NCBI RefSeq assembly: GCF_051014685.1
Contig: NW_027478420.1
Coordinates: 930,001-994,000 of the forward strand
Length of the DNA: 64,000 bases
Reading direction: 5' to 3'
Source: Ptiloglossa arizonensis
Taxonomy: Eukaryota > Arthropoda > Insecta > Hymenoptera > Colletidae
The position numbers were made by a program, and so were the translations under genes. Below are positions 1 to 64,000 of this stretch, piece by piece; position 1 is the first letter of the stretch, and the number at the start of each line of letters is the position of its first letter. The notes beneath the pieces are model-generated. The model did not search any database, was not told the DNA's origin, and saw nothing but the letters and a program-made list of their open reading frames with translations.

Positions 1-256
1 ACAACGTATAACGTACAACGTATAACGTACAACGTATAACGTACAACAAATAACGTATAAAGTATAACGTATAGCGTACAACGTATAACGTATAACGTAT
101 ATCGTATAACGTATAACGTATAACGTATAACGTATAACGTATAACGTATAACGTATAACGTATAACGTATAACGTATAACGTATAACGTATAACGTATAA
201 CGTATAACGTATAACGTATAACGTATAACGTATAACGTATAACGTATAACGTATAA

Positions 257-291
257 CGCATAACGTATAACGCATAACGTATAACGCATAA
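257..291. repeat. Short 14-bp dimer run (cgcataa-cgtataa), A1 copy
   Basis: Units cgcataa begin at 257, 271 and 285, alternating with canonical units. The same three-copy run recurs at 11013 (A2) and 21019 (A3), and a six-copy version lies at 9352. Confidence 0.95.
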
Positions 292-431
292 CGTATAACG
301 TATAACATGTAATGTATAACGTATAACGTATATCGAATAACGTATAACGTATAACGTATAACGTATAACGTATAACGTATAACGTATAACGTATAACGTA
401 TAACGTATAACGTATAACGTATAACGTATAA

Positions 432-991
432 CGCATAACGTATAACGTATAACGTATAACGTGTAACGTATAACGTATAACGTATAACATGTAATGTATA
501 ACGTATAACGTATAATGTGTAACGTATAACGTATAACGTATAACATGTAATGTATAACGTATAACGTATAATGTGTAACGTATAACGTATAACGTATAAC
601 GTACAACGTATAACGTATCACGTATAACGTATTACGAATAACGTATAACGTATAACGTATAACGTAACACCTATAACGTATAGAGTATAACGTATAGCGT
701 ACAACGTATAACGCATAACGTATAACGTATAACGTATAACGTGTAACGTATAACGTATAACGTATAACATGTAATGTATAACGTATAACGTATAATGTGT
801 AACGTATAACGTATAACGTATAACATGTAATGTATAACGTATAACGTATAATGTGTAACGTATAACGTATAACGTATAACGTACAACGTATAACGTATCA
901 CGTATAACGTATTACGAATAACGTATAACGTATAACGTATAACGTAACACCTATAACGTATAGAGTATAACGTATAGCGTACAACGTATAA
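432..991. repeat. 280-bp (40-unit) tandem pair, A1 copy
   Basis: Two 280-bp halves (432-711 and 712-991) each begin at a cgcataa unit. They carry the same ordered variants: two acatgtaatg motifs 56 bp apart (first at 488 and 544), each followed by taatgtgtaacg, then cgtacaa, cgtatca, cgtatta, cgaataa, gtaacacct, gagtataacg and tagcgtacaa. The second half is followed by a canonical unit instead of cgcataa. The same pair is present in A2 and A3, so it predates the 10-kb copies. Confidence 0.93.
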
Positions 992-1306
992 CGTATAACG
1001 TATATCGTATAACGTATAACGTATAACGTGTAACGTATAACGTATAACGTATAACGCATAACGTATAACGTATAACGTATAACGTATAAAGTATAACGTA
1101 TAACGTATAACGTATAACGTATAACGTATAACGTATAACGTATAACGTATAACATGTAATGTATAACGTATAACGTATAACGAATAACGTATAACGTATA
1201 ACGTATAACGTACAACGTATAACGTATAACGTATAACGTATAACGTATAACGTATAACGTATAACGTATAACGTATAACGTATAACGTATAACGTATAAC
1301 GTATAA

Positions 1307-1355
1307 CGTACAACGTACAACGTACAACGTACAACGTACAACGTACAACGTACAA
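1307..1355. repeat. Seven consecutive cgtacaa units (A1 copy)
   Basis: Units start every 7 bp from 1307 to 1349. The matching runs in A2 (12070-12118) and A3 (22075-22123) also hold seven units, but their second unit is agtacaa. That marks A2 and A3 as closer to each other than to A1. Confidence 0.94.
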
Positions 1356-2587
1356 CGTATAACGTATAACGTATAACGTATAACGTATAACGTATAACGT
1401 ACAACGTATAACGTATAACGTATAACGTATAACGTATAACGTATAACGTATAACGTATAACGTATAACGTATAACGTATAACGTATAACGTATAACGTAT
1501 AACGTACAACGTATAACGTATCGCGTATAACGTATTACGAATGACGTATAACGTATGACGTATAACGTATAACGTATAACGTATAACGTATAACGTATAA
1601 CGTATAACGTATAACGTATAACGTATAACGTATAACGTATAACGTAAAACATGCAATGTATAACGTATAACGTATAACGAATAACGTATAACGTATAACG
1701 TATAACGTATAACGTACAACGTATAACGTATAACGTATAACGTATAACGTATAACGTATAACGTATAACGTACAACGTATAACGTATCACGTATAACGTA
1801 TTACGAATGACGTATAACGTATGACCTATAACGTATAACGTATAACGTATAACGTATAACGTATAACGTATAACGTATAACGTATAACGTATAACGTATA
1901 ACGTATAACGTAAAACATGTAATGTATAACGTATAACGTATAACGAATAACGTATAACGTATAACGTATAACGTATAACGTACAACGTATAACGTATAAC
2001 GTATCACGTATAACGTATTACGAATAACGTATAACGTATAACGTATAACGTATAACGTAACACCTATAACGTATAACGTATGACGTATAACGTATAACGT
2101 ATAACGTATAACGTATTACGTATAACGTATAACGTATAACGTATAACAAGTAATGTATAACGTATAACGTATAACGAATAACATATAACGTATAACGTAT
2201 AACGTACAACGTATAACGTATAACGTATAACGTATAACGTATAACGTATAACGTATAACGTATAACGTATAACGTATAACGTATAACGTATAACATGTAA
2301 TGTATAACGTATAACGTATAATGTGTAACGTATAACGTATAACGTATAACGTATAACGTATAACGTAACACCTATAACGTATAACGTATGACGTATAACG
2401 TATAACGTATAACGTATAACGTATTACGTATAACGTATAACGTATAACGTATAACGTATAACGTATAACGTATAACGTATAACGTATAACGTATAACGTA
2501 TAACGTATAACGTATAACTCATAACGTATAACGTATAACGTATAACGTATAACGTATAACGAATAACGTATAACGTATAACGTATAA

Positions 2588-2596
2588 CGTATAATC
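2588..2596. repeat. Length-variant 9-bp unit cgtataatc (A1)
   Basis: The unit is followed by cgtataa and cctatga, and moves the array phase by +2. It is the first phase break in the window. The same 9-bp unit with the same right flank recurs at 9667, 13321 and 23342, so it is inherited and not a sequencing slip. Confidence 0.95.
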
Positions 2597-3824
2597 CGTA
2601 TAACCTATGACGTATAACGTATAACTTATAACGTATAACGTATAACGTATAACGTACAACGTATAACGTATCACGTATAACGTATTACGAATAACGTATA
2701 ACGTATGACGTATAACGTATAACGTATAACGTATAACGTATAACGTGTAACGGATAACGTATAACGAATAACGTAAAACGTATAACGCATGACGTATAAC
2801 GTATAACCTATAATGTATAACGTATAACGTATAACGTATAACGTATAACGTATAACGTATAACGTATAACGTATAACGAATAACGTATAACGTATAACGT
2901 ATAACGTATAACGTATAACGTATAACGTATAACGTATAACATGTAATGTATAACGTATAACGTATAATGTATAACGTATAACGTATAACGTATAACGTAC
3001 AACGTATAACGTATCACGTATAACGAATTACGAATAACGTATAACGTATAACGTATAACGTATAACGTAACACCTATAACGTATAACGTATGACGTATAA
3101 CGTATAACGTATAACGTATAACGTATTACGTATAACGTATAACGTATAACATATAACGTATAACCTATGACGTATAACGTATAACGTATAACGTATAACG
3201 TATAACGTATAACATGTAATGTATAACGTATAACGTATAATGTGTAACGTATAACGTATAACGTATAACGTATAACGTATAACGTGTAACGGATAACGTA
3301 TAACGAATAACGTAAAACGTATAACGCATGACGTATAAAGTATAACGTATAATGTATAACGTATAACGTATAACGTATAACGTATAACGTATAACGTATA
3401 ACGTATAACGTATAACGTATAACGTATAACGTATAACGTATAACGTATAACGTATAACGTATAACGTATAACGTATAACGTATAACATGTAATGTATAAC
3501 GTATAACGTATAATGTATAACGTATAACGTATAACGTATAACGTACAACGTATAACGTATCACGTATAACGTATTACGAATAACGTATAACGTATAACGT
3601 ATAACGTATAACGTAACACCTATAACGTATAACGTATGACGTATAACGTATAACGTATAACGTATAACGTATTACGTATGACGTATAACGTATAACATAT
3701 AACGTATAACCTATGACGTATAACGTATAACGTATAACGTATAACGTATAACGTATAACATGTAATGTATAACGTATAACGTATAATGTGTAACGTATAA
3801 CGTATAACGTATAACGTACAACGT

Positions 3825-5574
3825 ATAACGTATCACGTATAACGTATTACGAATAACGTATAACGTATAACGTATAACGTAACACCTATAACGTATAAAG
3901 TATAACGTATAGCGTACAACGTATAACGTATAACGTATATCGTATAACGTATAACGTATAACGTGTAACGTATAACGTATAACATGTAATGTATAACGTA
4001 TAACGTATAACGAATAACGTATAACGTATAACGTATAACGTACAACGTATAACGTATAACGTATAACGTATAACGTATAACGTATAATGTATAACGTATA
4101 ACGTATAACGTATAACGTATAACGTATAACGTATAACGTATAACGTATAACGTATAAAGTATAACGTACAACGTACAACGTACAACGTATAACGTATAAC
4201 GTATAACGTATAACGTATAACGTATAACGTATAACGTATAACGTATAACGTATAACGTATAACGTATAACGTATAACGTATAACGTATAACGTATAACGT
4301 ATAACGTATAACGTATAACGTATAACGTATAACGTATAACGTATAACGTATAACGTATAACGTACAACGTATAACGTATCACGTATGACGTATTACGAAT
4401 GACGTATAACGTATGACGTATAACGTATAACGTATAACGTATAACGTATAACGTATAACGTATAACGTATATCGTATAACGTATAACGTATAACGTATCA
4501 CGTATAACGTATCACGAATAACGTATAACGTATAACGTATAACGTATAACGTAACACCTATAACGTATAACGTATGACGTATAACGTATAACGTATAACG
4601 TATATCGTATTACGTATAACGTATAACGTATAACATATAACGTATAACCTATGACGTATTACGTATAACGTATAACGTATAACGTATAACGTATAACATG
4701 TAATGTATAACGTATAACGTATAATGTGTAACGTATAACGTATAACGTATAACGTATAACGTATAACGTATAACGTATAACGTATAACGTAAAACATGTA
4801 ATGTATAACGTATAACGTATAACGAATAACGTATAACGTATAACGTATAACGTATAACGTATAACGTATAACATGTAATGTATAACGTATAACGTATAAC
4901 GAATAACGTAGAACGTATAACGTATAACGTACAACGTATAACGTATAACGTACAACGTACAACGTACAACGTATAACGTATAACGTATAACGAATAACGT
5001 ATAACGTATAACGTATAACGTATAACATGTAACGGATAACGTATAACGAATAACGTAAAACGTATAACGCATGACGTATAACGTATAACGTATAACGTAT
5101 AACGTATAACGTATAACGTATAACGTATAACGTATAACGTATAACGTATAACGTATAACGTATAACGTATAACGTATAACGTACAACGTATAACGTATAA
5201 CGTATAACATGTAATGTATAACGTATAACGTATAACGAATAACGTATAACGTATAACGTATAACGTATAACGTATAACGTATAACGTATAACGTATAACG
5301 TATAACGTATAACGTATAACGTATAACGTACAACGTACAACGTACAACGTATAACGTATAACGTATAACGTATAACGTATAACATGTAATGTATAACGTA
5401 TAACGTATAACGAATAACGTATAACGTATAACGTATAACGTGTAACGTATAACGTACAACGTATAACGTATCACGTATAACGTATTACGAATAACGTATA
5501 ACGTATGACGTATAACGTATAACGTATAACGTATAACGTATAACGTATAACGTATAACGTATAACGTATAACGT
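3825..5574. repeat. 1,750-bp tandem duplication, left unit
   Basis: This is 250 heptamers, repeated immediately downstream at an offset of exactly 1,750 bp. Landmarks include gtaacacct near 3889 and 4551, cgtatat near 4612 and the acatgtaatg motifs. I see three single-base differences from the right unit: t4088 versus c5838, t4660 versus a6410, and g5076 versus c6826. A2 and A3 have only one equivalent unit, so the duplication is specific to A1. The ends fall in pure repeat and are approximate. Confidence 0.92.
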
Positions 5575-7324
5575 ATAACGTATCACGTATAACGTATTAC
5601 GAATAACGTATAACGTATAACGTATAACGTAACACCTATAACGTATAAAGTATAACGTATAGCGTACAACGTATAACGTATAACGTATATCGTATAACGT
5701 ATAACGTATAACGTGTAACGTATAACGTATAACATGTAATGTATAACGTATAACGTATAACGAATAACGTATAACGTATAACGTATAACGTACAACGTAT
5801 AACGTATAACGTATAACGTATAACGTATAACGTATAACGTATAACGTATAACGTATAACGTATAACGTATAACGTATAACGTATAACGTATAACGTATAA
5901 CGTATAAAGTATAACGTACAACGTACAACGTACAACGTATAACGTATAACGTATAACGTATAACGTATAACGTATAACGTATAACGTATAACGTATAACG
6001 TATAACGTATAACGTATAACGTATAACGTATAACGTATAACGTATAACGTATAACGTATAACGTATAACGTATAACGTATAACGTATAACGTATAACGTA
6101 TAACGTATAACGTACAACGTATAACGTATCACGTATGACGTATTACGAATGACGTATAACGTATGACGTATAACGTATAACGTATAACGTATAACGTATA
6201 ACGTATAACGTATAACGTATATCGTATAACGTATAACGTATAACGTATCACGTATAACGTATCACGAATAACGTATAACGTATAACGTATAACGTATAAC
6301 GTAACACCTATAACGTATAACGTATGACGTATAACGTATAACGTATAACGTATATCGTATTACGTATAACGTATAACGTATAACATATAACGTATAACCT
6401 ATGACGTATAACGTATAACGTATAACGTATAACGTATAACGTATAACATGTAATGTATAACGTATAACGTATAATGTGTAACGTATAACGTATAACGTAT
6501 AACGTATAACGTATAACGTATAACGTATAACGTATAACGTAAAACATGTAATGTATAACGTATAACGTATAACGAATAACGTATAACGTATAACGTATAA
6601 CGTATAACGTATAACGTATAACATGTAATGTATAACGTATAACGTATAACGAATAACGTAGAACGTATAACGTATAACGTACAACGTATAACGTATAACG
6701 TACAACGTACAACGTACAACGTATAACGTATAACGTATAACGAATAACGTATAACGTATAACGTATAACGTATAACATGTAACGGATAACGTATAACGAA
6801 TAACGTAAAACGTATAACGCATGACCTATAACGTATAACGTATAACGTATAACGTATAACGTATAACGTATAACGTATAACGTATAACGTATAACGTATA
6901 ACGTATAACGTATAACGTATAACGTATAACGTACAACGTATAACGTATAACGTATAACATGTAATGTATAACGTATAACGTATAACGAATAACGTATAAC
7001 GTATAACGTATAACGTATAACGTATAACGTATAACGTATAACGTATAACGTATAACGTATAACGTATAACGTATAACGTACAACGTACAACGTACAACGT
7101 ATAACGTATAACGTATAACGTATAACGTATAACATGTAATGTATAACGTATAACGTATAACGAATAACGTATAACGTATAACGTATAACGTGTAACGTAT
7201 AACGTACAACGTATAACGTATCACGTATAACGTATTACGAATAACGTATAACGTATGACGTATAACGTATAACGTATAACGTATAACGTATAACGTATAA
7301 CGTATAACGTATAACGTATAACGT
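5575..7324. repeat. 1,750-bp tandem duplication, right unit
   Basis: This is the near-identical second copy of 3825-5574. It carries canonical bases at 5838 and 6410 where the left unit is variant, and a private cctataa unit at 6825. The last 100 bp or so grade into segment B, so the right edge is uncertain. Confidence 0.9.
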
Positions 7325-8385
7325 ATAACGTATAACGTATAACGTATAACGTATAACGTATAACGTATAACGTATAACGTATAACGTATAACGTATAACG
7401 TATAACGTATAAAGTATAACGTATAACGTATAACGTATAACGTATAACGTACAACGTATAACGTATAACATGTAATGTATAACGTATAACGTATAACGAA
7501 TAACATATAACGTATGACGTATAACGTACAACGTATAACGTATAACGTATAACGTATAACGTATAACGTATAACGTATAACGTATAACGTATAACGTATA
7601 ACGTATAACGTATAACGTATAACGTATAACGTATAACGTATAACGTACAACGTATAACGTACAACGTATAACGTATAACGTATAACGTATAACGTATAAC
7701 GTATAACGTATAACGTATAACGTATAACGTATAACGTATAACGTATAACGTATAACGTATAACGTATAACGTATAACGTATAACGTATAACGTATAACGT
7801 ATAACGTATAACGTATAACGTATAACATGTAATGTATAACGTATAACGTATAACGTATAACGAATAACGTATAACGTATAACGCATCACGTATAACGTAT
7901 TACGAATAACGTATAACGTATGACGTATAACGTATAACGTATAACGTATAACGTATAACGTATAACGTATAACATGTAATGTACAACGTATAACGTATAA
8001 CGAATAACGTATAACGTATAACGTATAACGTACAACGTATAACGTATAACGTATAACGTATAACGTATAGCGTATCACGTATAACGTATTACGAATAACG
8101 TATAACGTATGACGTATAACGTATAACGTATAACGTATAACGTATAACGTATAACGTATAACGTATAACGTATAACGTATAACGTATAACGTATAACATG
8201 TAATGTATAACGTATAACGTATATCGAATAACGTATAACGTATAACGTATAACGTACAACGTATAACGTATAACGTATAACGTATAACGTATAACGTACA
8301 ACGTATAACGTATAACGTATAACGTATAACGTATAACGTATATCGTATAACGTATAACGTATAACGTATAACGTATAACTTATAA

Positions 8386-8455
8386 CGTACAACGTATAAC
8401 GTACAACGTATAACGTACAACGTATAACGTACAACGTATAACGTACAACGTATAA
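8386..8455. repeat. 14-bp dimer array cgtacaacgtataa x5
   Basis: cgtacaa units start at 8386, 8400, 8414, 8428 and 8442, alternating with canonical units. A cgtatat unit lies about six units upstream and agtataa and cgtatag follow. This is the first complete member of a family seen at 17 more places. Confidence 0.95.
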
Positions 8456-9106: not shown

Positions 9107-9176
9107 CGTACAACGTATAACGTACAACGTATAACGTACAACGTATAACGTACAACGTATAACGTACAACGTATAA
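9107..9176. repeat. 14-bp dimer array cgtacaacgtataa x5
   Basis: cgtacaa units start at 9107, 9121, 9135, 9149 and 9163, with the same flanks as the array at 8386 (721 bp, 103 units, upstream). Confidence 0.95.
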
Positions 9177-11754: not shown

Positions 11755-12202
11755 CGTATAACGTATATCGTATAACGTATAACGTATAACGTGTAACGTA
11801 TAACGTATAACGTATAACGCATAACGTATAACGTATAACGTATAACGTATAAAGTATAACGTATAACGTATAACGTATAACGTATAACGTATAACGTATA
11901 ACGTATAACGTATAACATGTAATGTATAACGTATAACGTATAACGAATAACGTATAACGTATAACGTATAACGTACAACGTATAACGTATAACGTATAAC
12001 GTATAACGTATAACGTATAACGTATAACGTATAACGTATAACGTATAACGTATAACGTATAACGTATAACGTACAAAGTACAACGTACAACGTACAACGT
12101 ACAACGTACAACGTACAACGTATAACGTATAACGTATAACGTATAACGTATAACGTATAACGTACAACGTATAACGTATAACGTATAACGTATAACGTAT
12201 AA

Positions 12203-13884: not shown

Positions 13885-16499
13885 CATATAACGTATAACC
13901 TATGACGTATAACGTATAACGTATAACGTATAACGTATAACGTATAACGTATAACATGTAATGTATAACGTATAACGTATAATGTGTAACGTATAACGTA
14001 TAACGTATAACGTATAACGTATAACGTGTAACGGATAACGTATAACGAATAACGTAAAACGTATAACGCATGACGTATAAAGTATAACGTATAATGTATA
14101 ACGTATAACGTATAACGTATAACGTATAACGTATAACGTATAACGTATAACGTATAACGTATAACGTATAACGTATAACGTATAACGTATAACGTATAAC
14201 GTATAACGTATAACGTATAACGTATAACGTATAACATGTAATGTATAACGTATAACGTATAATGTATAACGTATAACGTATAACGTATAACGTATAACGT
14301 ACAACGTATAACGTATCACGTATAACGTATTACGAATAACGTATAACGTATAACGTATAACGTATAACGTAACACCTATAACGTATAACGTATGACGTAT
14401 AACGTATAACGTATAACGTATAACGTATTACGTATGACGTATAACGTATAACATATAACGTATAACCTATGACGTATAACGTATAACGTATAACGTATAA
14501 CGTATAACGTATAAGATGTAATGTATAACGTATAACGTATAATGTGTAACGTATAACGTATAACGTATAACGTACAACGTATAACGTATCACGTATAACG
14601 TATTACGAATAACGTATAACGTATAACGTATAACGTAACACCTATAACGTATAAAGTATAACGTATAGCGTACAACGTATAACGTATAACGTATATCGTA
14701 TAACGTATAACGTATAACGTGTAACGTATAACGTATAACATGTAATGTATAACGTATAACGTATAACGAATAACGTATAACGTATAACGTATAACGTACA
14801 ACGTATAACGTATAACGTATAACGTATAACGTATAACGTATAACGTATAACGTATAACGTATAACGTATAACGTATAACGTATAACGTATAACGTATAAC
14901 GTATAACGTATAAAGTATCACGTACAACGTACAACGTACAACGTATAACGTATAACGTATAACGTATAACGTATAACGTATAACGTATAACGTATAACGT
15001 ATAACGTATAACGTATAACGTATAACGTATAACGTATAACGTATAACGTATAACGTATAACGTATAACGTATAACGTATAACGTATAACGTATAACGTAC
15101 AACGTATAACGTATCACGTATGACGTATTACGAATGACGTATAACGTATGACGTATAACGTATAACGTATAACGTATAACGTATAACGTATAACGTATAT
15201 CGTATAACGTATAACGTATAACGTATCACGTATAACGTATCACGAATAACGTATAACGTATAACGTATAACGTATAACGTATAACGTAACACCTATAACG
15301 TATAACGTATGACGTATAACGTATAACGTATAACGTATATCGTATTACGTATAACGTATAACGTATAACATATAACGTATAACCTATGACGTATAACGTA
15401 TAACGTATAACGTATAACGTATAACGTATAACATGTAATGTATAACGTATAACGTATAATGTGTAACGTATAACGTATAACGTATAACGTATAACGTATA
15501 ACGTATAACGTATAACGTATAACGTAAAACATGTAATGTATAACGTATAACGTATAACGAATAACGTATAACGTATAACGTATAACGTATAACGTATAAC
15601 GTATAACATGTAATGTATAACGTATAACGTATAACGTATAACGAATAACGTATAACGTATAACGTATAACGTACAACGTATAACGTATAACGTACAACGT
15701 ACAACGTACAACGTATAACGTATAACGTATAACGAATAACGTATAACGTATAACGTATAACGTATAACATGTAACGGATAACGTATAACGAATAACGTAA
15801 AACGTATAACGCATGACGTATAACGTATAACGTATAACGTATAACGTATAACGTATAACGTATAACGTATAACGTATAACGTATAACGTATAACGTATAA
15901 CGTATAACGTATAACGTATAACGTACAACGTATAACGTATAACGTATAACATGTAATGTATAACGTATAACGTATAACGAATAACGTATAACGTATAACG
16001 TATAACGTATAACGTATAACGTATAACGTATAACGTATAACGTATAACGTATAACGTATAACGTATAACGTACAACGTACAACGTACAACGTATAACGTA
16101 TAACGTATAACGTATAACGTATAACATGTAATGTATAACGTATAACGTATAACGAATAACGTATAACGTATAACGTATAACGTATAACGTAACACCTATA
16201 ACGTATAACGTATGACGTATAACGTATAACGTATAACGTATAACCTATTACGTATAACGTATAACGTATAACATATAACGTATAACCTATGACGTATAAC
16301 GTATAACGTATAACGTATAACGTATAACGTATAACGTATAACGTATAACGTATAACGTATAACGTATAACGTATAACGTATAACGTATAACGTATAACGT
16401 ATAACGTATAACGTATAACGTATAACGTATAACGTATAACGTATAACGTATAACGTATAACGTATAACGTATAACGTATAACGTACAACGTATAACGTA

Positions 16500-17112
16500 T
16501 CACGTATGACGTATTACGAATGACGTATAACGTATGACGTATAACGTATAACGTATAACGTATAACGTATAACGTATAGCGTACAACGTATAACGTATAA
16601 CGTATATCGTATAACGTATAACGTATAACGTGTAACGTATAACGTATAACATGTAATGTATAACGTATAACGTATAACGAATAACGTATAACGTATAACG
16701 TCTAACGTATAAAGTATAACGTACAACGTACAACGTACAACGTATAACGTATAACGTATAACGTATAACGTATAACGTATAACGTATAACGTATAACGTA
16801 TAACGTATAACGTATAACGTATAACGTATAACGTATAACGTATAACGTATAACGTATAACGTATAACGTATAACGTATAACGTATAACGTATAACGTATA
16901 ACGTACAACGTATAACGTATCACGTATGACGTATTACGTATGACGTATAACGTATAACGTATAACGTATAACGTATAACGTATAACGTATAACGTATTAC
17001 GTATAACGTATAACGTATAACGTATAACATGTAATGTATAACGTATAACGTATAATGTATAACGTATAACGTATAACGTATAACGTATAACGTACAACGT
17101 ATAACGTATCAC
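16500..17112. repeat. Y block, copy 1 (613 bp)
   Basis: The variant order includes cgtatga, cgtatta, cgaatga, cgtatag, cgtatat, acatgtaatg, cgaataa, cgtctaa at 16699, agtataa and three cgtacaa units. The same block recurs at 30554-31166 and 32640-33252. In all three the next X block (or its start) begins 753 bp after the Y start. Confidence 0.88.
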
Positions 17113-17252
17113 GTATAACGTATTACGAATAACGTATAACGTATAACGTATAACGTAACACCTATAACGTATAACGTATGACGTATAACGTATAACGTAT
17201 AACGTATAACGTATTACGTATAACGTATAACGTATAACATATAACGTATAAC

Positions 17253-17917
17253 CTATGACGTATAACGTATAACGTATAACGTATAACGTATAACGTATAA
17301 CATGTAATGTATAACGTATAACGTATAATGTGTAACGTATAACGTATAACGTATAACGTACAACGTATAACGTATCACGTATAACGTATTACGAATAACG
17401 TATAACGTATAACGTATAACGTAACACCTATAACGTATAAAGTATAACGTATAGCGTACAACGTATAACGTATAACGTATATCGTATAACGTATAACGTA
17501 TAACGTGTAACGTATAACGTATAACATGTAATGTATAACGTATAACGTATAACGAATAACGTATAACGTATAACGTATAACGTACAACGTATAACGTATA
17601 ACGTATAACGTATAACGTATAACGTATAACGTATAACGTATAACGTATAACGTATAACGTATAACGTATAACGTATAACGTATAACGTCTAACGTATAAA
17701 GTATAACGTACAACGTACAACGTACAACGTATAACGTATAACGTATAACGTATAACGTATAACGTATAACGTATAACGTATAACGTATAACGTATAACGT
17801 ATAACGTATAACGTATAACGTATAACGTATAACGTATAACGTATAACGTATAACGTATAACGTATAACGTATAACGTATAACGTATAACGTATAACGTAC
17901 AACGTATAACGTATCAC
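17253..17917. repeat. X block, copy 1 (665 bp)
   Basis: Five full copies of exactly 665 bp (also at 29417, 31307, 36998 and 39126) show the same variants in the same order, and their conceptual frame-by-frame readings are identical. Landmarks are acatgtaatg with taatgtgtaacg, gtaacacct, agtataa, cgtatag, cgtatat, a second acatgtaatg with cgaataa, cgtctaa and three cgtacaa units. Confidence 0.9.
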
Positions 17918-18392
17918 GTATGACGTATTACGAATGACGTATAACGTATGACGTATAACGTATAACGTATAACGTATAACGTATAACGTATAACGTATAA
18001 CGTATAACGTATAACGTATAACGTATAACGTATCACGTATAACGTATCACGAATAACGTATAACGTATAACGTATAACGTATAACGTAACACCTATAACG
18101 TATAACGTATGACGTATAACGTATAACGTATAACGTATAACGTATAACGTATAACGTGTAACGGATAACGTATAACGAATAACGTAAAACGTATAACGCA
18201 TGACGTATAACGTATAACGTATAACGTATAACGTATAACGTATAACGTATAACGTATAACGTATAACGTATAACGTATAACGTATAACGTATAACGTATA
18301 ACGTATAACGTATAACGTATAACGTATAACGTATAACGTATAACGTATATCGTATAACGTATAACGTATAACGTATAACGTATAACGTATAA

Positions 18393-18721
18393 CGTACAAC
18401 GTATAACGTACGACGTATAACGTACAACGTATAACGTACAACGTATAACGTACAACGTATAACGTAGAACGTATAACGTATAACGTATAACGTATAACGT
18501 ATAACGTATATCGTATAACATGTAATGTATAACGTATAACGAATAACGTATAACGTATAACGTATAACGTATAACGTATAACGTATAACGTATAACGTAT
18601 AACGTATAACGTATAACGTATAACGTATATCGTATAACGTATAACGTATAACGTACAACGTATAACGTACAACGTATAACGTACAACGTATAACGTACAA
18701 CGTATAACGTACAACGTATAA
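18393..18721. repeat. Two 14-bp dimer arrays (18393-18462 and 18652-18721)
   Basis: Each has five cgtacaacgtataa copies ending in a cgtagaa unit (18463 and 18722). In the first the second copy is cgtacga at 18407. Equivalents lie at 26579 and 26831 (C2), and at 34190 and 34442 (C3). Confidence 0.94.
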
Positions 18722-30081: not shown

Positions 30082-30553
30082 GTATGACGTATTACGAATG
30101 ACGTATAACGTATGACGTATAACGTATAACGTATAACGTATAACGTATAACGTATAACGTATAACGTATAACGTATAACGTATAACGTATAACGTATCAC
30201 GTATAACGTATCACGAATAACGTATAACGTATAACGTATAACGTATAACGTAACACCTATAACGTATAACGTATGACGTATAACGTATAACGTATAACGT
30301 ATAACGTATTACGTATAACGTATAACGTATAACATATAACGTATAACCTATGACGTATAACGTATAACGTATAACGTATAACGTATAACGTATAACGTAT
30401 AACGTATAACGTATAACGTATAACGTATAACGTATAACGTATAACGTATAACGTATAACGTATAACGTATAACGTATAACGTATAACGTATAACGTATAA
30501 CGTATAACGTATAACGTATAACGTATAACGTATAACGTACAACGTATAACGTA

Positions 30554-31166
30554 TCACGTATGACGTATTACGAATGACGTATAACGTATGACGTATAACG
30601 TATAACGTATAACGTATAACGTATAACGTATAGCGTACAACGTATAACGTATAACGTATATCGTATAACGTATAACGTATAACGTGTAACGTATAACGTA
30701 TAACATGTAATGTATAACGTATAACGTATAACGAATAACGTATAACGTATAACGTCTAACGTATAAAGTATAACGTACAACGTACAACGTACAACGTATA
30801 ACGTATAACGTATAACGTATAACGTATAACGTATAACGTATAACGTATAACGTATAACGTATAACGTATAACGTATAACGTATAACGTATAACGTATAAC
30901 GTATAACGTATAACGTATAACGTATAACGTATAACGTATAACGTATAACGTATAACGTACAACGTATAACGTATCACGTATGACGTATTACGTATGACGT
31001 ATAACGTATAACGTATAACGTATAACGTATAACGTATAACGTATAACGTATTACGTATAACGTATAACGTATAACGTATAACATGTAATGTATAACGTAT
31101 AACGTATAATGTATAACGTATAACGTATAACGTATAACGTATAACGTACAACGTATAACGTATCAC
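30554..31166. repeat. Y block, copy 2 (613 bp)
   Basis: Matches 16500-17112 unit for unit. It lies 753 bp upstream of the next X block, as in C1. Confidence 0.88.
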
Positions 31167-31306
31167 GTATAACGTATTACGAATAACGTATAACGTATAA
31201 CGTATAACGTAACACCTATAACGTATAACGTATGACGTATAACGTATAACGTATAACGTATAACGTATTACGTATAACGTATAACGTATAACATATAACG
31301 TATAAC

Positions 31307-31971
31307 CTATGACGTATAACGTATAACGTATAACGTATAACGTATAACGTATAACATGTAATGTATAACGTATAACGTATAATGTGTAACGTATAACGTA
31401 TAACGTATAACGTACAACGTATAACGTATCACGTATAACGTATTACGAATAACGTATAACGTATAACGTATAACGTAACACCTATAACGTATAAAGTATA
31501 ACGTATAGCGTACAACGTATAACGTATAACGTATATCGTATAACGTATAACGTATAACGTGTAACGTATAACGTATAACATGTAATGTATAACGTATAAC
31601 GTATAACGAATAACGTATAACGTATAACGTATAACGTACAACGTATAACGTATAACGTATAACGTATAACGTATAACGTATAACGTATAACGTATAACGT
31701 ATAACGTATAACGTATAACGTATAACGTATAACGTATAACGTCTAACGTATAAAGTATAACGTACAACGTACAACGTACAACGTATAACGTATAACGTAT
31801 AACGTATAACGTATAACGTATAACGTATAACGTATAACGTATAACGTATAACGTATAACGTATAACGTATAACGTATAACGTATAACGTATAACGTATAA
31901 CGTATAACGTATAACGTATAACGTATAACGTATAACGTATAACGTATAACGTACAACGTATAACGTATCAC
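31307..31971. repeat. X block, copy 3 (665 bp)
   Basis: Same variant order and length as copies 1 and 2. Confidence 0.9.
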
Positions 31972-32600
31972 GTATGACGTATTACGAATGACGTATAACG
32001 TATGACGTATAACGTATAACGTATAACGTATAACGTATAACGTATAACGTATAACGTATAACGTATAACGTATAACGTATAACGTATCACGTATAACGTA
32101 TCACGAATAACGTATAACGTATAACGTATAACGTATAACGTAACACCTATAACGTATAACGTATGACGTATAACGTATAACGTATAACGTATAACGTATA
32201 ACGTATAACGTGTAACGGATAACGTATAACGAATAACGTAAAACGTATAACGCATGACGTATAACGTATAACGTATAACGTATAACGTATAACGTATAAC
32301 GTATAACGTATAACGTATAACGTATAACGTATAACGTATAACGTATAACGTATAACGTATAACGTATAACGTATAACGTATAACGTATAACGTATAACGT
32401 ATATCGTATAACGTATAACGTATAACGTATAACGTATAACGTATAACGTACAACGTATAACGTACAACGTATAACGTACAACGTATAACGTATAACGTAT
32501 AACGTATAACGTATAACGTATAACGTATAACGTATAACGTATAACGTATAACGTATAACGTATAACGTATAACGTATAACGTATAACGTATAACGTATAA

Positions 32601-54681: not shown

Positions 54682-55577
54682 CGTGTAACGGATAACGTAT
54701 GACGTATAACGTGTAACGGATAACGTATAACGAATAACGTATAACGTATAACGTATAACGTATAACGTATAACGTATAACGTATGACATGTAATGTATAA
54801 CGTATAACGTATAACGAATAACGTATAACGTATAACGTATAACGTACAACGTATAACGTATAACGTATAACGTATAACGTATAACGTATAACGTATAACG
54901 TACAACGTATAACGTATAACGTATAACGTATAACGTATAACGTATAACGTATAACGTATGACATGTAATGTATAACGTATAACGTATAACGAATAACGTA
55001 TAACGTATAACGTATAACGTACAACGTATAACGTATAACGTATAACGTATAACGTATAACGTATAACGTATAACGTATAACGTATAACGTATAACGTATA
55101 ACGTATAACGTATAACGTATAACGTATAACGTATAACGTATAACGTATAACGTATAACGTATAACGTATAACGTATAACGTATAACGTACAACGTATAAC
55201 GTATCACGTATAACGTATTACGAATGACGTATAACGTATGACGTTAAACGTATAACGTATAACGTATAACGTATAACGTATAACGTATAACGTATAACGT
55301 ATAACGTATAACGTATAACGTATAACGTATAACGTACAACGTACAACGTACAACGTATAACGTATAACGTATAACGTATAACGTATAACGTATAACGTAT
55401 AACGTATAACGTATAACGTACAACGTACAACGTACAACGTATAACGTATAACGTATAACGTATAACGTATAACGTATAACGTATAACGTACAACGTATAA
55501 CGTATAACGTATAACGTATAACGTATAACGTATATCGTATAACGTATAACGTATAACGTATAACGTATAACGTATAA

Positions 55578-55661
55578 CGTACAACGTATAACGTACAACG
55601 TATAACGTACAACGTATAACGTACAACGTATAACGTACAACGTATAACGTACAACGTATAA
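55578..55661. repeat. 14-bp dimer array cgtacaacgtataa x6
   Basis: Six copies from 55578, then cgtagaa at 55662 and 55669. Confidence 0.95.
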
Positions 55662-57419
55662 CGTAGAACGTAGAACGTATAACGTATAACGTATAACGTA
55701 TAACGTATAACGTATAACGTATAACGTATAACGTATAACGTATAACGTATAACGTATAACGTATAACGTATAACGTATAACGTATAACGTATAACGTATA
55801 ACGTATAACGTATAACGTATAACGTATAACGTATAACGTATAACGTATAACGTATAACGTATAACGCACATCGTATAACGTATAACATATAACGAATAAC
55901 GTAAAACGCATAACGTATAACGTATAACGTATAACGTATAACGTACAACGTATAACGTATAACGTATAACGTATAACGTGTAACGGATAACGTATAACGA
56001 ATAACGTAAAACGTATAACGTATAACGTATAACGTAACACCTATAACGTATAACGTATGACGTATAACGTATAACGTATAACGTATAACGTATTACGTAT
56101 AACGTATAACGTATAACATATAACGTATAACCTATGACGTATAACGTATAACGTATAACGTATAACGTATAACGTATAACATGTAATGTATAACGTATAA
56201 CGTATAATGTGTAACGTATAACGTATAACGTATAACGTACAACGTATAACGTATCACGTATAACGTATTACGAATAACGTATAACGTATAACGTATAACG
56301 TATAACATGTAATGTATAATGTATAACGTATAACGAATAACGTATAACGTATAACGTATAACGTATAACGTACAACGTATAACGTATAACGTATAACGTA
56401 TAACGTATAACGTATAACGTAGAACGTATAACGTAGAACGTATAACGTATAACGTATAACGTATAACGTATAACGTATAACGTATAACGTATAACGTATA
56501 ACGTACAACGTACAACGTACAACGTATAATGTATAACGTATAACGTATAACGTATAACGTATAACGTATATCGTATAACGTATAACGTATAACGTGTAAC
56601 GTATAACGTATAACGTATAACGCATAACGTATAACGTATAACGTATAACGTATAAAGTATAACGTATAACGTATAACGTATAACGTATAACGTATAACGT
56701 ATAACGTATAACGTATAACATGTAATGTATGACGTATAACGTATAACGAATAACGTATAACGAATAACGTATAACGTATAACGTACAACGTATATCGTAT
56801 AACGTATAACGTATAACGTATAACGTATAACGTATAACGTATAACGTATAACGTAGAACGTATAACGTATAACGTATAACGTATAACGTATAACGTATAA
56901 CGTATAACGTATAACGTAGAACGTATAACGTACAACGTACAACGTACAACGTATAACGTAGAACGTATAACGTATAACGTATAACGTATAACGTATAACG
57001 TATAACGTATAACGTATAACGTATAACGTATAACGTATAACGTATAACGTATAACGTATAACGTATAACGTATAACGTATAACGTATAACGTATAACGTA
57101 TAACGTATAACGTATAACGTATAACGTATAACGTATAACGTATAACGTACAACGTATAACGTATCACGTATAACGTATTACGAATGACGTATAACGTATG
57201 ACGTATAACGTATAACGTATAACGTATAACGTATAAGGTATAACGTATAACGTATAACGTATAACGTATAACGTAAAACATGTAATGTATAACGTATAAC
57301 GTATAACGAATAACGTATAACGTATAACGTATAACGTATAACGTACAACGTATAACGTGTAACGTATAACGTATAACGTATAACGTATAACGTATAACGT
57401 ACAACGTATAACGTATAAC

Positions 57420-57920
57420 GTATAACGTACAAAGTATAACGTATCACGTATAACGTATAACGAATGACGTATAACGTATGACGTATGACGTATAACGTAT
57501 AACGTATAACGTATAACGTATAACGTATAACGTATAACGTATAACGTATAACGTATAACGTAAAACATGTAATGTATAACGTATAACGTATAACGAATAA
57601 CGTATAACGTATAACGTATAACGTATAACGTATAACGTACAACGTATAACGTATAACGTATCACGTATAACGTATTGCGAATAACGTATAACGTATAACG
57701 TATAACGTATAACGTAACACCTATAACGTATAACGTATGACGTATAACGTATAACGTATAACGTATTACGTATAACGTATAACGTATAACATATAACGTA
57801 TAACCTATGACGTATAACGTATAACGTATAACGTATAACGTATAACGTATAACATGTAATGTATAATGTATAACGTATAACGTATAATGTGTAACGTATA
57901 ACGTATAACGTATAACGTAC
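57420..57920. repeat. W block, copy 2
   Basis: Matches copy 1 with cgtattg at 57671. It has an extra taatgtataacg unit after its acatgtaatg near 57860. Confidence 0.85.
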
Positions 57921-58349
57921 AACGTATAACGTATAACGTATAACGCATAACGTATAACGTATAACGTATAACGTATAACGTATAACGTATAACGTATATC
58001 GTATAACGTATAACGTATAACGTGTAACGTATAACGTATAACGTATAACGTATAACGTATAACGTATAACGTATAACATGTAATGTATGACGTATAACGT
58101 ATAACGAATAACGTATAACGAATAACGTATAACGTATAACGTACAACGTATATCGTATAACGTATAACGTATAACGTATAACGTATAACGTATAACGTAT
58201 AACGTAGAACGTATAACGTATAACGTATAACGTATAACGTATAACGTATAACGTATAACGTACAACGTATAACGTATAACGTATAACGTATAACGTATAA
58301 CGTATAACGTAGAACGTATAACGTATAACGTATAACGTATAACGTATAA

Positions 58350-58745
58350 CGTACAACGTATAACGTACAACGTATAACGTACAACGTATAACGTACAACG
58401 TATAACGTACAACGTATAACGTACAACGTATAACGTAGAACGTAGAACGTATAACGTATAACGTATAACGTATAACGTATAACGTATAACGTATAACGTA
58501 AAACATGTAATGTATAACGTATAACGTATAACGAATAACGTATAACGTATAACGTATAATGTATAACGTATAACGTACAACGTATAACGTATAACGTATC
58601 ACGTATAACGTATTGCGAATAACGTATAACGTATAACGTATAACGTATAACGTAACACCTATAACGTATAACGTATGACGTATAACGTATAACGTATAAC
58701 GTATTACGTATAACGTATAACGTATAACATATAACGTATAACGAA
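58350..58745. repeat. Dimer array x6 joined to a shortened W block (copy 3)
   Basis: Six cgtacaacgtataa copies (58350-58433) and two cgtagaa units are followed by gtaaaacatgtaatg near 58500, cgtattg at 58609 and gtaacacct near 58645. The block then breaks off after acatataacg, without the cctatga part present in the other W copies. Confidence 0.83.
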
Positions 58746-60205
58746 TAACGTATAACGTATAACGTACAACGTATATCGTATAACGTATAACGTATAACGT
58801 ATAACGTATAACGTATAACGTATAACGTATAACGTATAACGTATAGAGTATAACGTAGAACGTATAACGTATAACGTATAACGTATAACGTATAACGTAT
58901 AACGTATAACGTATAACGTAGAACGTATAACGTACAACGTACAACGTACAACGTATAACGTAGAACGTATAACGTATAACGTATAACGTATAACGTATAA
59001 CGTATAACGTATAACGTATAACGTATAACATGTAATGTATGACGTATAACGTATAACGAATAACGTATAACGAATAACGTATAACGTATAACGTACAACG
59101 TATATCGTATAACGTATAACGTATAACGTATAACGTATAACGTATAACGTATAACGTAGAACGTATAACGTATAACGTATAACGTATAACGTACAACGTA
59201 TAACGTATAACGTATAACGTATAACGTATAACGTATAACGTAGAACGTATAACGTATAACGTATAACGTATAACGTATAACGTATAACGTATAACGTATA
59301 ACGTATAACGTACAACGTACAACGTACAACGTATAACGTATAACGTATAACGTATAACGTATAACGTATAACGTATATCGTATAACGTATAACGTATAAC
59401 GTGTAACGTATAACGTATAACGTATAACGCATAACGTATAACGTATAACGTATAACGTATAAAGTATAACGTATAACGTATAACGTATAACGTATAACGT
59501 ATAACGTATAACGTATAACGTATAACATGTAATGTATGACGTATAACGTATAACGAATAACGTATAACGAATAACGTATAACGTATAACGTACAACGTAT
59601 ATCGTATAACGTATAACGTATAACGTATAACGTATAACGTATAACGTATAACGTAGAACGTATAACGTATAACGTATAACGTATAACGTATAACGTATAA
59701 CGTATAACGTATAACGTATAACGTAGAACGTATAACGTACAACGTACAACGTACAACGTATAACGTATAACGTATAACGTATAACGTATAACGTATAACG
59801 TATAACGTATAACGTGTAACGTATAACGTATAACGTATAACGTATAACGTATAACGTATAACGTATAACGTATAACGTATAACGTATAACGTATAACGTA
59901 TAACGTATAACGTATAACGTATAACGTACAACGTATAACGTATCACGTATAACGTGTTACGAATGACGTATAACGTATGACGTATAACGTATAACGTATA
60001 ACGTATAACGTATAAGGTATAACGTATAACGTATAACGTATAACGTATAACGTAAAACATGTAATGTATAACGTATAACGTATAACGAATAACGTATAAC
60101 GTATAACGTATAACGTATAACGTACAACGTATAACGTGTAACGTATAACGTATAACGTATAACGTATAACGTATAACGTATAACGTATAACGTATAACGT
60201 ATAAC

Positions 60206-60730
60206 GTATAACCTACAAAGTATAACGTATCACGTATAACGTATAACGAATGACGTATAACGTATGACGTATGACGTATAACGTATAACGTATAACGTAT
60301 AACGTATAACGTATAACGTATAACGTATAACGTATAACGTATAACGTATAACGTAAAACATGTAATGTATAACGTATAACGTATAACGAATAACGTATAA
60401 CGTATAACGTATAACGTATAACGTATAACGTACAACGTATAACGTATAACGTATCACGTATAACGTATTGCGAATAACGTATAACGTATAACGTATAACG
60501 TATAACGTAACACCTATAACGTATAACGTATGACGTATAACGTATAACGTATAACGTATAACGTATTACGTATAACGTATAACGTATAACATATAACGTA
60601 TAACCTATGACGTATAACGTATAACGTATAACGTATAACGTATAACGTATAACGTATAACATGTAATGTATAACGTATAACGTATAATGTGTAACGTATA
60701 ACGTATAACGTATAACGTACAACGTATAAC
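60206..60730. repeat. W block, copy 4
   Basis: It begins cctacaa-agtataa at 60212, with cgtattg at 60464 and gtaacacct near 60508. The cctacaa start is shared with 48613 in segment F. Confidence 0.85.
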
Positions 60731-61338
60731 GTATCACGTATAACGTATTACGAATAACGTATAACGTATAACGTATAACGTAACACCTATAACGTATAAA
60801 GTATAACGTATAGCGTACAACGTATAACGTATAACGTATATCGTATAACGTATAACGTATAACGTGTAACGTATAACGTATAACGTATAACGCATAACGT
60901 ATAACGTATAACGTATAACGTATAAAGTATAACGTATAACGTATAACGTATAACGTATAACGTATAACGTATAACGTATAACGTATGACATGTAATGTAT
61001 AACGTATAACGTATAACGAATAACGTATAACGTATAACGTATAACGTACAACGTATAACGTATAACGTATAACGCATAACGTATAACGTATAACGTATAA
61101 CGTATAACGTATAACGTATAACGTATAACGTATAACGTATAACGTATAACGTATAACGTACAACGTACAACGTACAACGTATAACGTATAACGTATAACG
61201 TATAACGTATAACGTATAACGTATAACGTATAACGTATAACGTATAAAGTATAACGTATAACGTATAACGTATAACGTATAACGTATAACGTGTAACGGA
61301 TAACGTATAACGAATAACGTAAAACGTATAACGCATGA

Positions 61339-61779
61339 CGTATAACGTATAACGTATAACGTATAACGTATAACGTATAACGTATAACGTATAACGTATA
61401 ACGTATAACGTATAACGTATAACGTATAACGTATAACGTATAACGTATAACGTATAACGTATAACGTATAACGTATAACGTATAACGTATAACGTATAAC
61501 GTATAACGTATAACGTATAACGTATAACGTATAACGTATAACGTATAACGTATAACGTATAACGTATAACGTATAACGTATAACGTATAACGTATAACGT
61601 ATAACGTATAACGTATAACGTATAACGTATAACGTATAACGTATAACGTATAACGTATAACGTATAACGTATAACGTATAACGTATAACGTATAACGTAT
61701 AACGTATAACGTATAACGTATAACGTATAACGTATAACGTATAACGTATAACGTATAACGTATAACGTATAACGTATAA
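61339..61779. repeat. Pure run of 63 canonical units, longest of its family
   Basis: It lies between cgcatga (61332) and cgtgtaa (61780). Sister runs have 47, 43 and 45 units, so this one has gained or the others lost units by slippage or unequal exchange. Confidence 0.92.
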
Positions 61780-62843
61780 CGTGTAACGGATAACGTATAA
61801 CGTATAACGTGTAACGGATAACGTATAACGAATAACGTATAACGTATAACGTATAACGTATAACGTATAACGTATAACGTATAACGTATGACATGTAATG
61901 TATAACGTATAACGTATAACGAATAACGTATAATGTGTAACGTATAACGTATAACGTATAACGTACAACGTATAACGTATCACGTATAACGTATTACGAA
62001 TAACGTATAACGTATAACGTATAACGTAACACCTATAACGTATAAAGTATAACGTATAGCGTACAACGTATAACGTATAACGTATATCGTATAACGTATA
62101 ACGTATAACGTGTAACGTATAACGTATAACGTATAACGCATAACGTATAACGTATAACGTATAACGTATAAAGTATAACGTATAACGTATAACGTATAAC
62201 GTATAACGTATAACGTATAACGTATAACGTATGACATGTAATGTATAACGTATAACGTATAACGAATAACGTATAACGTATAACGTATAACGTACAACGT
62301 ATAACGTATAACGTATAACGCATAACGTATAACGTATAACGTATAACGTATAACGTATAACGTATAACGTGTAACGTATAACGTATAACGTATAACGCAT
62401 AACGTATAACGTATAACGTATAACGTATAAAGTATAACGTATAACGTATAACGTATAACGTATAACGTATAACGTATAACGTATAACGTATGACATGTAA
62501 TGTATAACGTATAACGTATAACGAATAACGTATAACGTATAACGTATAACGTACAACGTATAACGTATAACGTATAACGCATAACGTATAACGTATAACG
62601 TATAACGTATAACGTATAACGTATAACGTATAACGTATAACGTATAACGTATAACGTATAACGTACAACGTACAACGTACAACGTATAACGTATAACGTA
62701 TAACGTATAACGTATAACGTATAACGTATAACGTATAACGTATAACGTATAAAGTATAACGTATAACGTATAACGTATAACGTATAACGTCTAACGTGTA
62801 ACGGATAACGTATAACGAATAACGTAAAACGTATAACGCATGA

Positions 62844-63158
62844 CGTATAACGTATAACGTATAACGTATAACGTATAACGTATAACGTATAACGTATAAC
62901 GTATAACGTATAACGTATAACGTATAACGTATAACGTATAACGTATAACGTATAACGTATAACGTATAACGTATAACGTATAACGTATAACGTATAACGT
63001 ATAACGTATAACGTATAACGTATAACGTATAACGTATAACGTATAACGTATAACGTATAACGTATAACGTATAACGTATAACGTATAACGTATAACGTAT
63101 AACGTATAACGTATAACGTATAACGTATAACGTATAACGTATAACGTATAACGTATAA
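62844..63158. repeat. Pure run of 45 canonical units
   Basis: It lies between cgcatga (62837) and cgtgtaa (63159), with the same flanks as the runs at 49026, 54381 and 61339. Confidence 0.93.
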
Positions 63159-64000
63159 CGTGTAACGGATAACGTATAACGTATAACGTGTAACGGATAA
63201 CGTATAACGAATAACGTATAACGTATAACGTATAACGTATAACGTATAACGTATAACGTATAACGTATGACATGTAATGTATAACGTATAACGTATAACG
63301 AATAACGTATAACGTATAACGTACAACGTATAACGTATAACGTATAACGTATAACGTATAACGTATAACGTATAACGTACAACGTATAACGTATAACGTA
63401 TAACGTATAACGTATAACGTATAACGTATAACGTATGACATGTAATGTATAACGTATAACGTATAACGAATAACGTATAACGTATAACGTATAACGTACA
63501 ACGTATAACGTATAACGTATAACGTATAACGTATAACGTATAACGTATAACGTATAACGTATAACGTATAACGTACAACGTACAACGTACAACGTACAAC
63601 GTACAACGTATAACGTATAACGTATAACGTATAACGTATAACGTATAACGTATAACGTATAACGTATAACGTATAACGTATAACGTACAACGTATAACGT
63701 ATAACGTACAACGTATAACGTATAACGTATAACGTATAACGTATAACGTATAACGTATAACGTATAACGTATAACGTATAACGTATAACGTATAACGTAT
63801 AACGTATAACGTATAACGTACAACGTACAACGTACAACGTATAACGTATAACGTATAACGTATAACGTATAACGTATAACGTATAACGTATAACGTATAA
63901 CGTATAACGTATAACGTATAACGTAAAACATGTAATGTATAACGTATAACGTATAACGAATAACGTATAACGTATAACGTATAACGTATAACGTATAACG

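What the first reader, a model, noticed from the sequence alone, without database searches (positions are those of the whole stretch)
1..64000. A heptamer satellite at least 64 kb long with no interruption
The sequence shows only cgtataa-derived units from the first to the last base. I see no transposon, gene or other satellite insertion, and I do not recognise the unit as a described satellite. Arrays this long and clean usually mark centromeric, pericentromeric or sex-chromosome heterochromatin.
Basis: partly seen in the sequence, partly recalled or inferred. Interest (0 to 1): 0.8.

Follow-up and report, generated by a model that had tools for sequence, protein, structure and literature searches.

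The report
Megabase seven-base satellite in bee
The whole window is one stretch of a seven-letter DNA repeat, probably from the heterochromatin of an unnamed bee with a large genome; the repeat fills a sizeable share of that genome next to a second, nucleosome-sized repeat, and it looks like a new example of a well-known kind of chromosome filler.

Summary
Confirmed, and larger than reported. The window is one unbroken heptamer array (CGTATAA; 95.4% identity, no insert). It lies at C50:930,001-994,000 of a 998.67-Mb genome. On C50 the heptamer starts at 119,787, straight after a 177-bp satellite, and is present at every sampled point to the contig end: 1.67 Mb if unbroken, 9.6% read. The four-unit word occurs 6,326,127 times genome-wide, about 123-125 Mb (range 91-215, floor 44). 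COX1 indicates a bee, nearest Colletes gigas (83%); species unnamed. Heptamer ends 5 of contigs C1-C16, never at a telomere-bearing end; 175-bp satellite ends 9. Likeliest: pericentromeric or heterochromatic-arm satellite grown by multi-kilobase duplication: 87.7% of variant-bearing 70-mers in the window are multi-copy against 1.0-1.4% after shuffling, with sharply bounded sharing along C50. CpG sites show no methylation-like mutation excess. Literature searches found no satellite with this unit. Chromosome position, heterochromatin marks and centromere activity are untested. A new member of a known kind.

The parts
1..64000 (+). Uninterrupted heptamer satellite, consensus CGTATAA (TRF consensus AACGTAT), all in one orientation, 95.4% of bases match the consensus
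   Evidence: TRF single row 3-64,000; wrap-around alignment; no gap between exact units over 43 bp
16299..18411 (+). One copy of the longest exact repeat in the window (2,113 bp; the other copy starts at 30,353, 14,054 bp away)
   Evidence: suffix comparison; identity of the two copies rechecked
30353..32465 (+). Other copy of the 2,113-bp exact repeat
1311..1353 (+). Run of the CGTACAA variant, one of three 43-bp stretches without an exact consensus unit; near-copies at 12,074 and 22,079
488..501 (+). Example of the recurrent variant pair CATGTAA-TGTATAA (the pair occurs 156 times in the window)
   Evidence: unit counts

Best explanation
The window is the interior of a megabase block of simple-sequence (7-bp) satellite DNA in proximal heterochromatin, either the pericentromere or a largely heterochromatic arm, of a bee. 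SHOWN: the array, its presence at all sampled points of C50 beyond 119,787, its genome-wide word count, its junction with a 177-bp satellite, its place at ends of large contigs that bear no telomere, and an internal history of multi-kilobase duplications with sharp limits. INFERRED: the array grew by repeated local duplication (unequal sister-chromatid exchange or replication-based copying of kilobase segments) on top of slippage, and homogenises locally. It acts as bulk constitutive heterochromatin beside the nucleosome-length 175/177-bp satellites, which are the likelier kinetochore sequence. It codes for nothing.
For: Single TRF array. 6,326,127 exact four-unit words against 0 for the backwards control. 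Base-level junction: 177-bp monomer to 119,777, heptamer from 119,787 of C50; 177-bp array upstream at 1-10 kb and 100-110 kb; heptamer at every sampled point downstream to the contig end. Of contigs C1-C16, heptamer ends 5 (C2, C3, C10, C13, C14), never both ends; the opposite end is telomere TTAGGTCTGGG in C13 and C14, a degenerate telomere-like array in C3, 177-bp in C10 and a GAAACG repeat in C2. On the 36-Mb contig C1 the listed matches lie at only 4 places, each under 500 bp (complete for C1 if the listing is in contig order, as it appears). 87.7% of variant 70-mer occurrences in the window are multi-copy against 1.0-1.4% in 5 unit-order shuffles; sharing with the window is 0.687-0.875 for the three nearest C50 pieces, 0.221 and 0.205 at 1.3 and 1.5 Mb, 0.000-0.013 at 300-860 kb and 0.000 at the far end; shuffles at most 0.022. 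No dominant higher-order period.
Against: No cytogenetic, ChIP or Hi-C data, so proximal position is inferred from contig ends. The pattern is not uniform: 7 of contigs C1-C16 start in 175-bp satellite and C15 and C16 also end in it. C10 and C2 run from heptamer to 177-bp or GAAACG satellite with no telomere seen, so a distal heterochromatic block is not excluded there. Only about 160 kb (9.6%) of the 1.67-Mb C50 block was read, and one 10-kb piece (700 kb) is more degenerate, with 2.6% of bases in exact reverse-strand units. Repeat-rich assemblies can be mis-joined or collapsed; raw reads were not available. The test for direct heptamer-telomere junctions did not complete.
Confidence: 0.75

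Rival explanations
1. The heptamer is itself a centromere core (CENP-A-bearing) on the chromosomes that have it, with 175/177-bp satellite serving as flank or as core on other chromosomes.
For: Heptamer is the last sequence at a telomere-free end of 5 of contigs C1-C16. C50 shows a more homogeneous zone (identity 0.954-0.963 at 0.92-1.5 Mb) between more diverged pieces (0.928-0.949 at 0.3-0.86 Mb; 0.936 in the last kilobase) with an abrupt limit, a pattern described for primate centromere arrays (PMC11062924, passages). CpG transitions are not in excess.
Against: Nucleosome-length satellites have larger copy floors (72 Mb for 175-bp, 104 Mb for 177-bp, against 44 Mb for the heptamer) and 175-bp ends 9 of contigs C1-C16. 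On C20 the heptamer lies outside 177-bp sequence on both sides at sampled points. Layering follows from local duplication in any satellite.
Confidence: 0.15
2. The heptamer fills a whole heterochromatic arm, as reported for one arm of Trigona chromosomes, and is not confined to a pericentromere. (Overlaps with the main statement, which leaves this open.)
For: Amount (about 12% of a 1-Gb genome by density); Trigona bees have heterochromatin mostly in one arm, with one satellite covering it (PMC9957317, passages).
Against: None of contigs C1-C16 carries heptamer and telomere at the same end; but the direct junction search did not complete.
Confidence: 0.25
3. Sex-chromosome or B-chromosome satellite.
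For: Very long clean arrays can be of this kind (general knowledge).
Against: The organism is a bee, haplodiploid (general knowledge). Heptamer ends five large contigs, two of them with a telomere at the other end, so it is inferred to lie on several chromosomes.
Confidence: 0.03
4. Assembly artefact: an array expanded or ordered falsely by the assembler.
For: C50 ends inside the array; about 656 Mb lies outside contigs C1-C15, in 2,001 other contigs.
Against: The longest exact internal repeat of the window is 2,113 bp, shorter than ordinary long accurate reads (general knowledge; the read type is not known here). Shared variant order falls with distance and then stops sharply, unlike random joining.
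Confidence: 0.07

Closest known systems
Drosophila virilis heptamer satellites 1-3 (ACAAACT, ATAAACT, ACAAATT)
   Same: 7-bp unit, non-coding, abundant, heterochromatic, Sat1 pericentromeric by FISH; about 12% to over 40% of the genome depending on method (PMC6922343, passages)
   Different: The unit is not a rotation or reverse complement: 3, 2 and 3 of 7 bases differ at best. Different insect order. Here every consensus unit carries a CpG and the array abuts a 177-bp satellite.
Chnootriba argus TTAAAA satellite (ladybird)
   Same: Very short unit, about 20% of the genome, pericentromeric heterochromatin of all chromosomes, no higher-order repeat (PMC6780895, passages)
   Different: 6-bp unit of other sequence; beetle; position shown by FISH there, only inferred here.
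Trigona hyalinata ThyaSat01-301 (stingless bee)
   Same: Bee; one satellite of similar abundance (13.774%) fills heterochromatin (PMC9957317, passages)
   Different: 301-bp unit; the eight satellites reported there have units of 145-542 bp.
Tribolium madens macro-dyad satellite arrays
   Same: Two satellites adjoin in megabase proximal blocks with changes of orientation (PMC13081366, passages); C20 here samples as heptamer(-), GC-rich repeat, 177(+), 177(-), heptamer(+)
   Different: Two satellites from one ~110-bp element, intermingled, there; here a heptamer and a 177-bp repeat of unlike sequence. The window has one orientation only, and the C20 inversion site was not read. That paper says such symmetries had been documented only in Tribolium.
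Layered alpha-satellite arrays of primate centromeres
   Same: Local layers, more homogeneous zones with more diverged surroundings (PMC11062924, passages; here)
   Different: No higher-order repeat here; no kinetochore data.

Membership tests
Satellite DNA (general) | Head-to-tail tandem repetition over long arrays | tested here: met
   TRF 3-64,000, period 7, 9,139.6 copies
Satellite DNA (general) | High genomic abundance | tested here: met
   6,326,127 four-unit words; about 123-125 Mb by density, floor 44 Mb
Satellite DNA (general) | Non-coding | tested here: met
   All 142 ORFs of at least 100 aa lie on the minus strand, overlapping one another, where the three-unit (21-base) consensus has no stop in any frame; none of that length on the plus strand. 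No protein or expression search was made
Satellite DNA (general) | Location in constitutive heterochromatin | tested here: inconclusive
   Contig ends and adjacency to other satellites only; no chromatin data
Drosophila virilis heptamer satellites | Unit ACAAACT / ATAAACT / ACAAATT or rotation | tested here: not met
   Minimum distance 3, 2 and 3 of 7 over all rotations and both strands
Telomeric repeat | Unit equals the genome's telomere motif, at contig tips | tested here: not met
   Ten of the 32 ends of C1-C16 are pure TTAGGTCTGGG (count of the motif); heptamer shares an end with it in none of the 16
Higher-order-repeat satellite | A dominant multi-unit period of variants | tested here: not met
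   Best variant-sharing lags 0.050 (14 bp) and 0.049 (20.8 kb) against median 0.013
Centromeric satellite | Binds CENP-A | not testable with these tools
   Sequence only
Macro-dyad satellite | Inverted subarrays | tested here: inconclusive
   One orientation throughout the window; orientation changes between sampled points of C20 and C10, inversion sites not read

The most novel reading that the evidence does not exclude
In this bee a seven-base satellite works as a centromere core on a subset of chromosomes while a nucleosome-length 175/177-bp satellite does so on others. That would be two unlike centromere sequence classes sharing one karyotype, turning over by layer-by-layer local duplication, with the repeat unit free to be far smaller than a nucleosome.
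Probability: 0.12. Interest if true: 0.75.

Novelty: new member of a known kind. Interest (0 to 1): 0.42.

Why it matters
Very short (5-10-bp) satellites as centromere-region sequence are a Drosophila hallmark in the review seen (PMC8122249, passages). The bee satellites in the one bee paper whose passages were seen have units of 145-542 bp (PMC9957317). A bee with about 12% of a 1-Gb assembly in a heptamer, in contigs long enough to show junctions and layers, gives a system for asking how short satellites grow, and whether heptamer or nucleosome-length repeats carry the kinetochore. The assembly is about three times the 307-314 Mb reported for the colletid bee Hylaeus dilatatus (PMC12881847, abstract start in listing); the floors of the three satellites alone sum to about 220 Mb (44 + 104 + 72).

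Tried and rejected
Rejected: telomeric repeat (motif differs); array broken by a transposon or other insert in the window; coding repeat; structured RNA of a known family; hairpin-forming unit, since single strands fold less well than all 200 shuffles, z +3.60, +3.55 and, for a window piece, +2.65; strongly methylated array, since distinct CpG-transition contexts are 52.5 per site against 92.2 at other sites, or 59.5 by my arithmetic if the hot position-5 T-to-C is left out, with transversions at 47.9; regular higher-order repeat; nucleosome-scale spacing of variants (autocorrelation within about 0.04 of zero at 21-28 units).

The four-unit word gave 0 viral matches and 27 stretches from prokaryote genomes or MAGs with 1-2 matches each, read as unrelated short tracts and not followed up. 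A search for 18S rRNA to identify the GC-rich repeat on C20 did not complete. Paper searches on bee genomes and satellites gave comparison cases but not this unit in the titles and abstract starts listed. Literature on the unit itself; of 14 rotations on both strands 12 were searched as whole words (GTTATAC and ACGTATA were not), plus 6 of the fourteen-letter forms (0 papers). The 16 papers listed were judged from titles and abstract starts, none of which concerns a satellite; none was opened.
Full report
OBSERVATION. The window is a single tandem array. TRF gives one row, 3-64,000, period 7, 9,139.6 copies. Aligning the window to an endless CGTATAA track leaves 61,056 of 64,000 bases matching, 2,917 substitutions, 27 inserted and 6 deleted bases; 6,665 of 9,141 units are exact and there are 70 unit spellings, the commonest variants being CGTACAA (543), CGAATAA (266), TGTATAA (201) and CATGTAA (171). 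No stretch longer than 43 bp lacks an exact unit. There is no sign of a gene: all 142 listed ORFs of at least 100 aa are on the minus strand, where the 21-base (three-unit) consensus lacks stops in every frame, and they overlap one another. There is no Rfam match at gathering scores.

WHERE IT LIES. The window is C50:930,001-994,000 of a genome of 998,670,959 bases in 2,016 contigs. C50 has 1,788,031 bases. Its first part is a 177-bp satellite: TRF period 177 over both sampled 10-kb pieces, 1-10 kb and 100-110 kb, and in small probes from 112 kb to 119.6 kb; 10-100 kb was not read. The 177-bp monomer breaks off at 119,777, nine bases TTAGGTTAG follow, and the heptamer begins at 119,787. From there every sampled piece is heptamer in the same main orientation: nine 10-kb pieces, the window, nine 500-bp pieces, five 200-bp pieces, one 40-bp piece and the last kilobase. 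One piece (700 kb) is more degenerate and has 2.6% of its bases in exact reverse-strand units. That is about 160 kb of 1,668,245 bases (my arithmetic; length), so the unsampled 90% is inferred. The contig ends inside the array, so the true block is probably longer.

ABUNDANCE. The word (CGTATAA)x4 occurs 3,186,447 + 3,139,680 times, and 0 + 0 times when read backwards. The window holds 3,237; eleven 10-kb heptamer pieces hold 294-697 each, 5,661 in all. This converts to 122.9 Mb (eleven pieces) or 125.1 Mb (window density), with extremes of 91 and 215 Mb. The floor, counting 7 bases per match, is 44.3 Mb. The 177-bp and 175-bp satellites have 587,948 and 411,923 exact copies of a core word, floors of 104 and 72 Mb. 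Contigs C1-C15 hold 342 Mb; 656 Mb lies in the other 2,001. Contig numbers run nearly, not strictly, by length (C15 is longer than C14), so C1-C16 are called here the first sixteen, not proven the largest. Of ten smaller contigs (C60 to C2016) sampled at their start, two begin in heptamer, two in 175-bp, five in 177-bp satellite and one in other sequence.

CONTIG ENDS. Both ends of C1-C16 were read, 500-1,000 bases each as a rule. Heptamer is at one end in five (C2, C3, C10, C13, C14). Opposite ends: telomere TTAGGTCTGGG in C13 and C14, a degenerate telomere-like array in C3, 177-bp in C10, and in C2 a GAAACG repeat, with copies of the 177-bp core from 34.2 Mb. 175-bp satellite starts C1, C4, C7, C8, C9, C11 and C12, ends C15 and is at both ends of C16; C15 starts in 177-like sequence, C5 in the GAAACG repeat and C6 in other sequence; C8 ends in other sequence. 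(The k-mer references for 175-bp and GAAACG were taken from C1, C4, C2 and C5 themselves; for C1 the core spacing of 175, and for the others the repeat period, are the independent evidence.) Telomere is at one end of C1, C4-C7, C9, C11-C14. The motif is the one reported for many aculeates (PMC10632776, passages). C2 is heptamer at all points sampled to 1.4 Mb and at none from 1.5 Mb on until 5 Mb. C1 shows only four heptamer places in 36 Mb, each under 500 bp (listing in apparent contig order). C21 runs from 177-like sequence to heptamer. C20 samples as heptamer(-) at its start, a GC-rich unidentified repeat, 177(+), 177(-), heptamer(+) at its end; the probe at 1.7 Mb matched none of these and that at 1.5 Mb only weakly. 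C10 has heptamer(-) at its start and heptamer(+) at 0.5 Mb.

ORGANISM. COX1 read with the invertebrate mitochondrial code matches bees best: Colletes gigas 83%, Andrena 81-82%, Hylaeus 79-80%. A tree of 28 rows (27 references picked by me) puts it inside the bee fork (100/99), nearest Colletes by path length, but no supported small clade holds it. No call names the species.

HOW IT GREW. Occurrences of variant-bearing 70-mers (at least three non-consensus units) in the window are multi-copy in 87.7% of cases, against 1.0-1.4% in five unit-order shuffles. Exact repeats reach 2,113 bp at 14 kb spacing and over 1 kb at spacings from 1.9 to 22 kb. Sharing with the window is 0.761, 0.875 and 0.687 for pieces at 920 kb, 994 kb and 1.1 Mb, 0.221 and 0.205 at 1.3 and 1.5 Mb, then 0.000 at 860, 700 and 500 kb, 0.013 at 300 kb and 0.000 in the last kilobase; on another contig (C2) 0.043 and 0.000; shuffled versions at most 0.022. 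Identity to consensus is 0.954-0.963 in the sharing zone, 0.928-0.949 at 300-860 kb, 0.936 in the last kilobase, and 0.959 and 0.951 in two C2 pieces. So a layer seen from 920 kb to at least 1.5 Mb has grown by local duplication of kilobase segments, with a sharp limit between 870 and 920 kb. There is no dominant higher-order period. Unequal exchange or replication-based copying is inferred; the two cannot be told apart here.

CHROMATIN HINTS. The window has 13.2 CpG per 100 bp. Distinct contexts of CpG transitions (52.5 per site) are not more frequent than other transitions (92.2 per site; 59.5 if the hot T-to-C at position 5 is left out, my arithmetic) and are close to transversions (47.9 per site). 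Heavy germline methylation is thus unlikely (inference; copies made by duplication are not fully independent). Single strands do not fold well, so a hairpin role of the unit is not supported.

KNOWN COUNTERPARTS. Heptamer satellites of Drosophila virilis (PMC6922343, passages) are the closest in kind; the unit differs by 2-3 bases of 7 at best. Short pericentromeric satellites occur in a ladybird (PMC6780895, passages), heterochromatin-filling 301-bp satellites in a stingless bee (PMC9957317, passages), and layered arrays in primate centromeres (PMC11062924, passages). A review describes satellite units as mostly nucleosome-length or 5-10 bp (PMC8122249, passages); this genome has both side by side. 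The unit was not found as a satellite in the held library (with the limits given in Tried and rejected); satellite databases were not at hand.

VERDICT. A real, very large heptamer satellite, not found described; a new member of a known kind. Position and function rest on inference from contig ends and adjacency.

Noticed in passing
G000 contigs C8, C139, C203, C443 and others: The genome holds many near-full-length copies of the mitochondrial COX1 gene: 88 of 631 candidates were scored, all 88 passed the cut-off and cover at least 430 of 436 profile positions; five of them are on C969, probably mitochondrial. An unusually large load of nuclear mitochondrial copies.
   Followed up: no
C969 (147,081 bp), L025-L029: Five identical 4,338-bp COX1 segments spaced 22-27 kb apart: a multimer of an enlarged mitochondrial genome with length variation, or a nuclear tandem insertion.
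   Followed up: no
L009, L010 (C50:1-10,000 and 100,001-110,000): Many 177-bp monomers contain TGGGTTAGGTC, a full rotation of the 11-bp telomere unit TTAGGTCTGGG (30 and 20 copies per 10 kb), where the 175-bp relative has GCGGATTGGTC. Possibly coincidence.
   Followed up: partly
C50:119,778-119,786 (L172): Nine bases TTAGGTTAG, like the common insect telomere repeat TTAGG, sit exactly between the 177-bp satellite and the heptamer.
   Followed up: no
C20, about 50-450 kb (L153-L160, L121): Mostly GC-rich sequence in which one 35-base stretch recurs about 150 kb away, between heptamer and 177-bp satellite; looks like a ribosomal or other tandem cluster, not identified because the search did not complete.
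   Followed up: partly
C2 end, C5 start, C17 start, C26 start, C60 at 0.8 Mb: A third satellite with a 20/40-bp GAAACG-type unit.
   Followed up: no
window 1-64000, minus strand: The minus strand of the heptamer consensus lacks stop codons in all frames, giving spurious ORFs up to 956 aa: a trap for automatic annotation.
   Followed up: yes
L180, L185, L189-L195 (Dysgonamonadaceae MAG JAIRZF01): A bacterial MAG has the same four-unit heptamer word on nine fetched stretches, probably its own short heptamer repeats.
   Followed up: no
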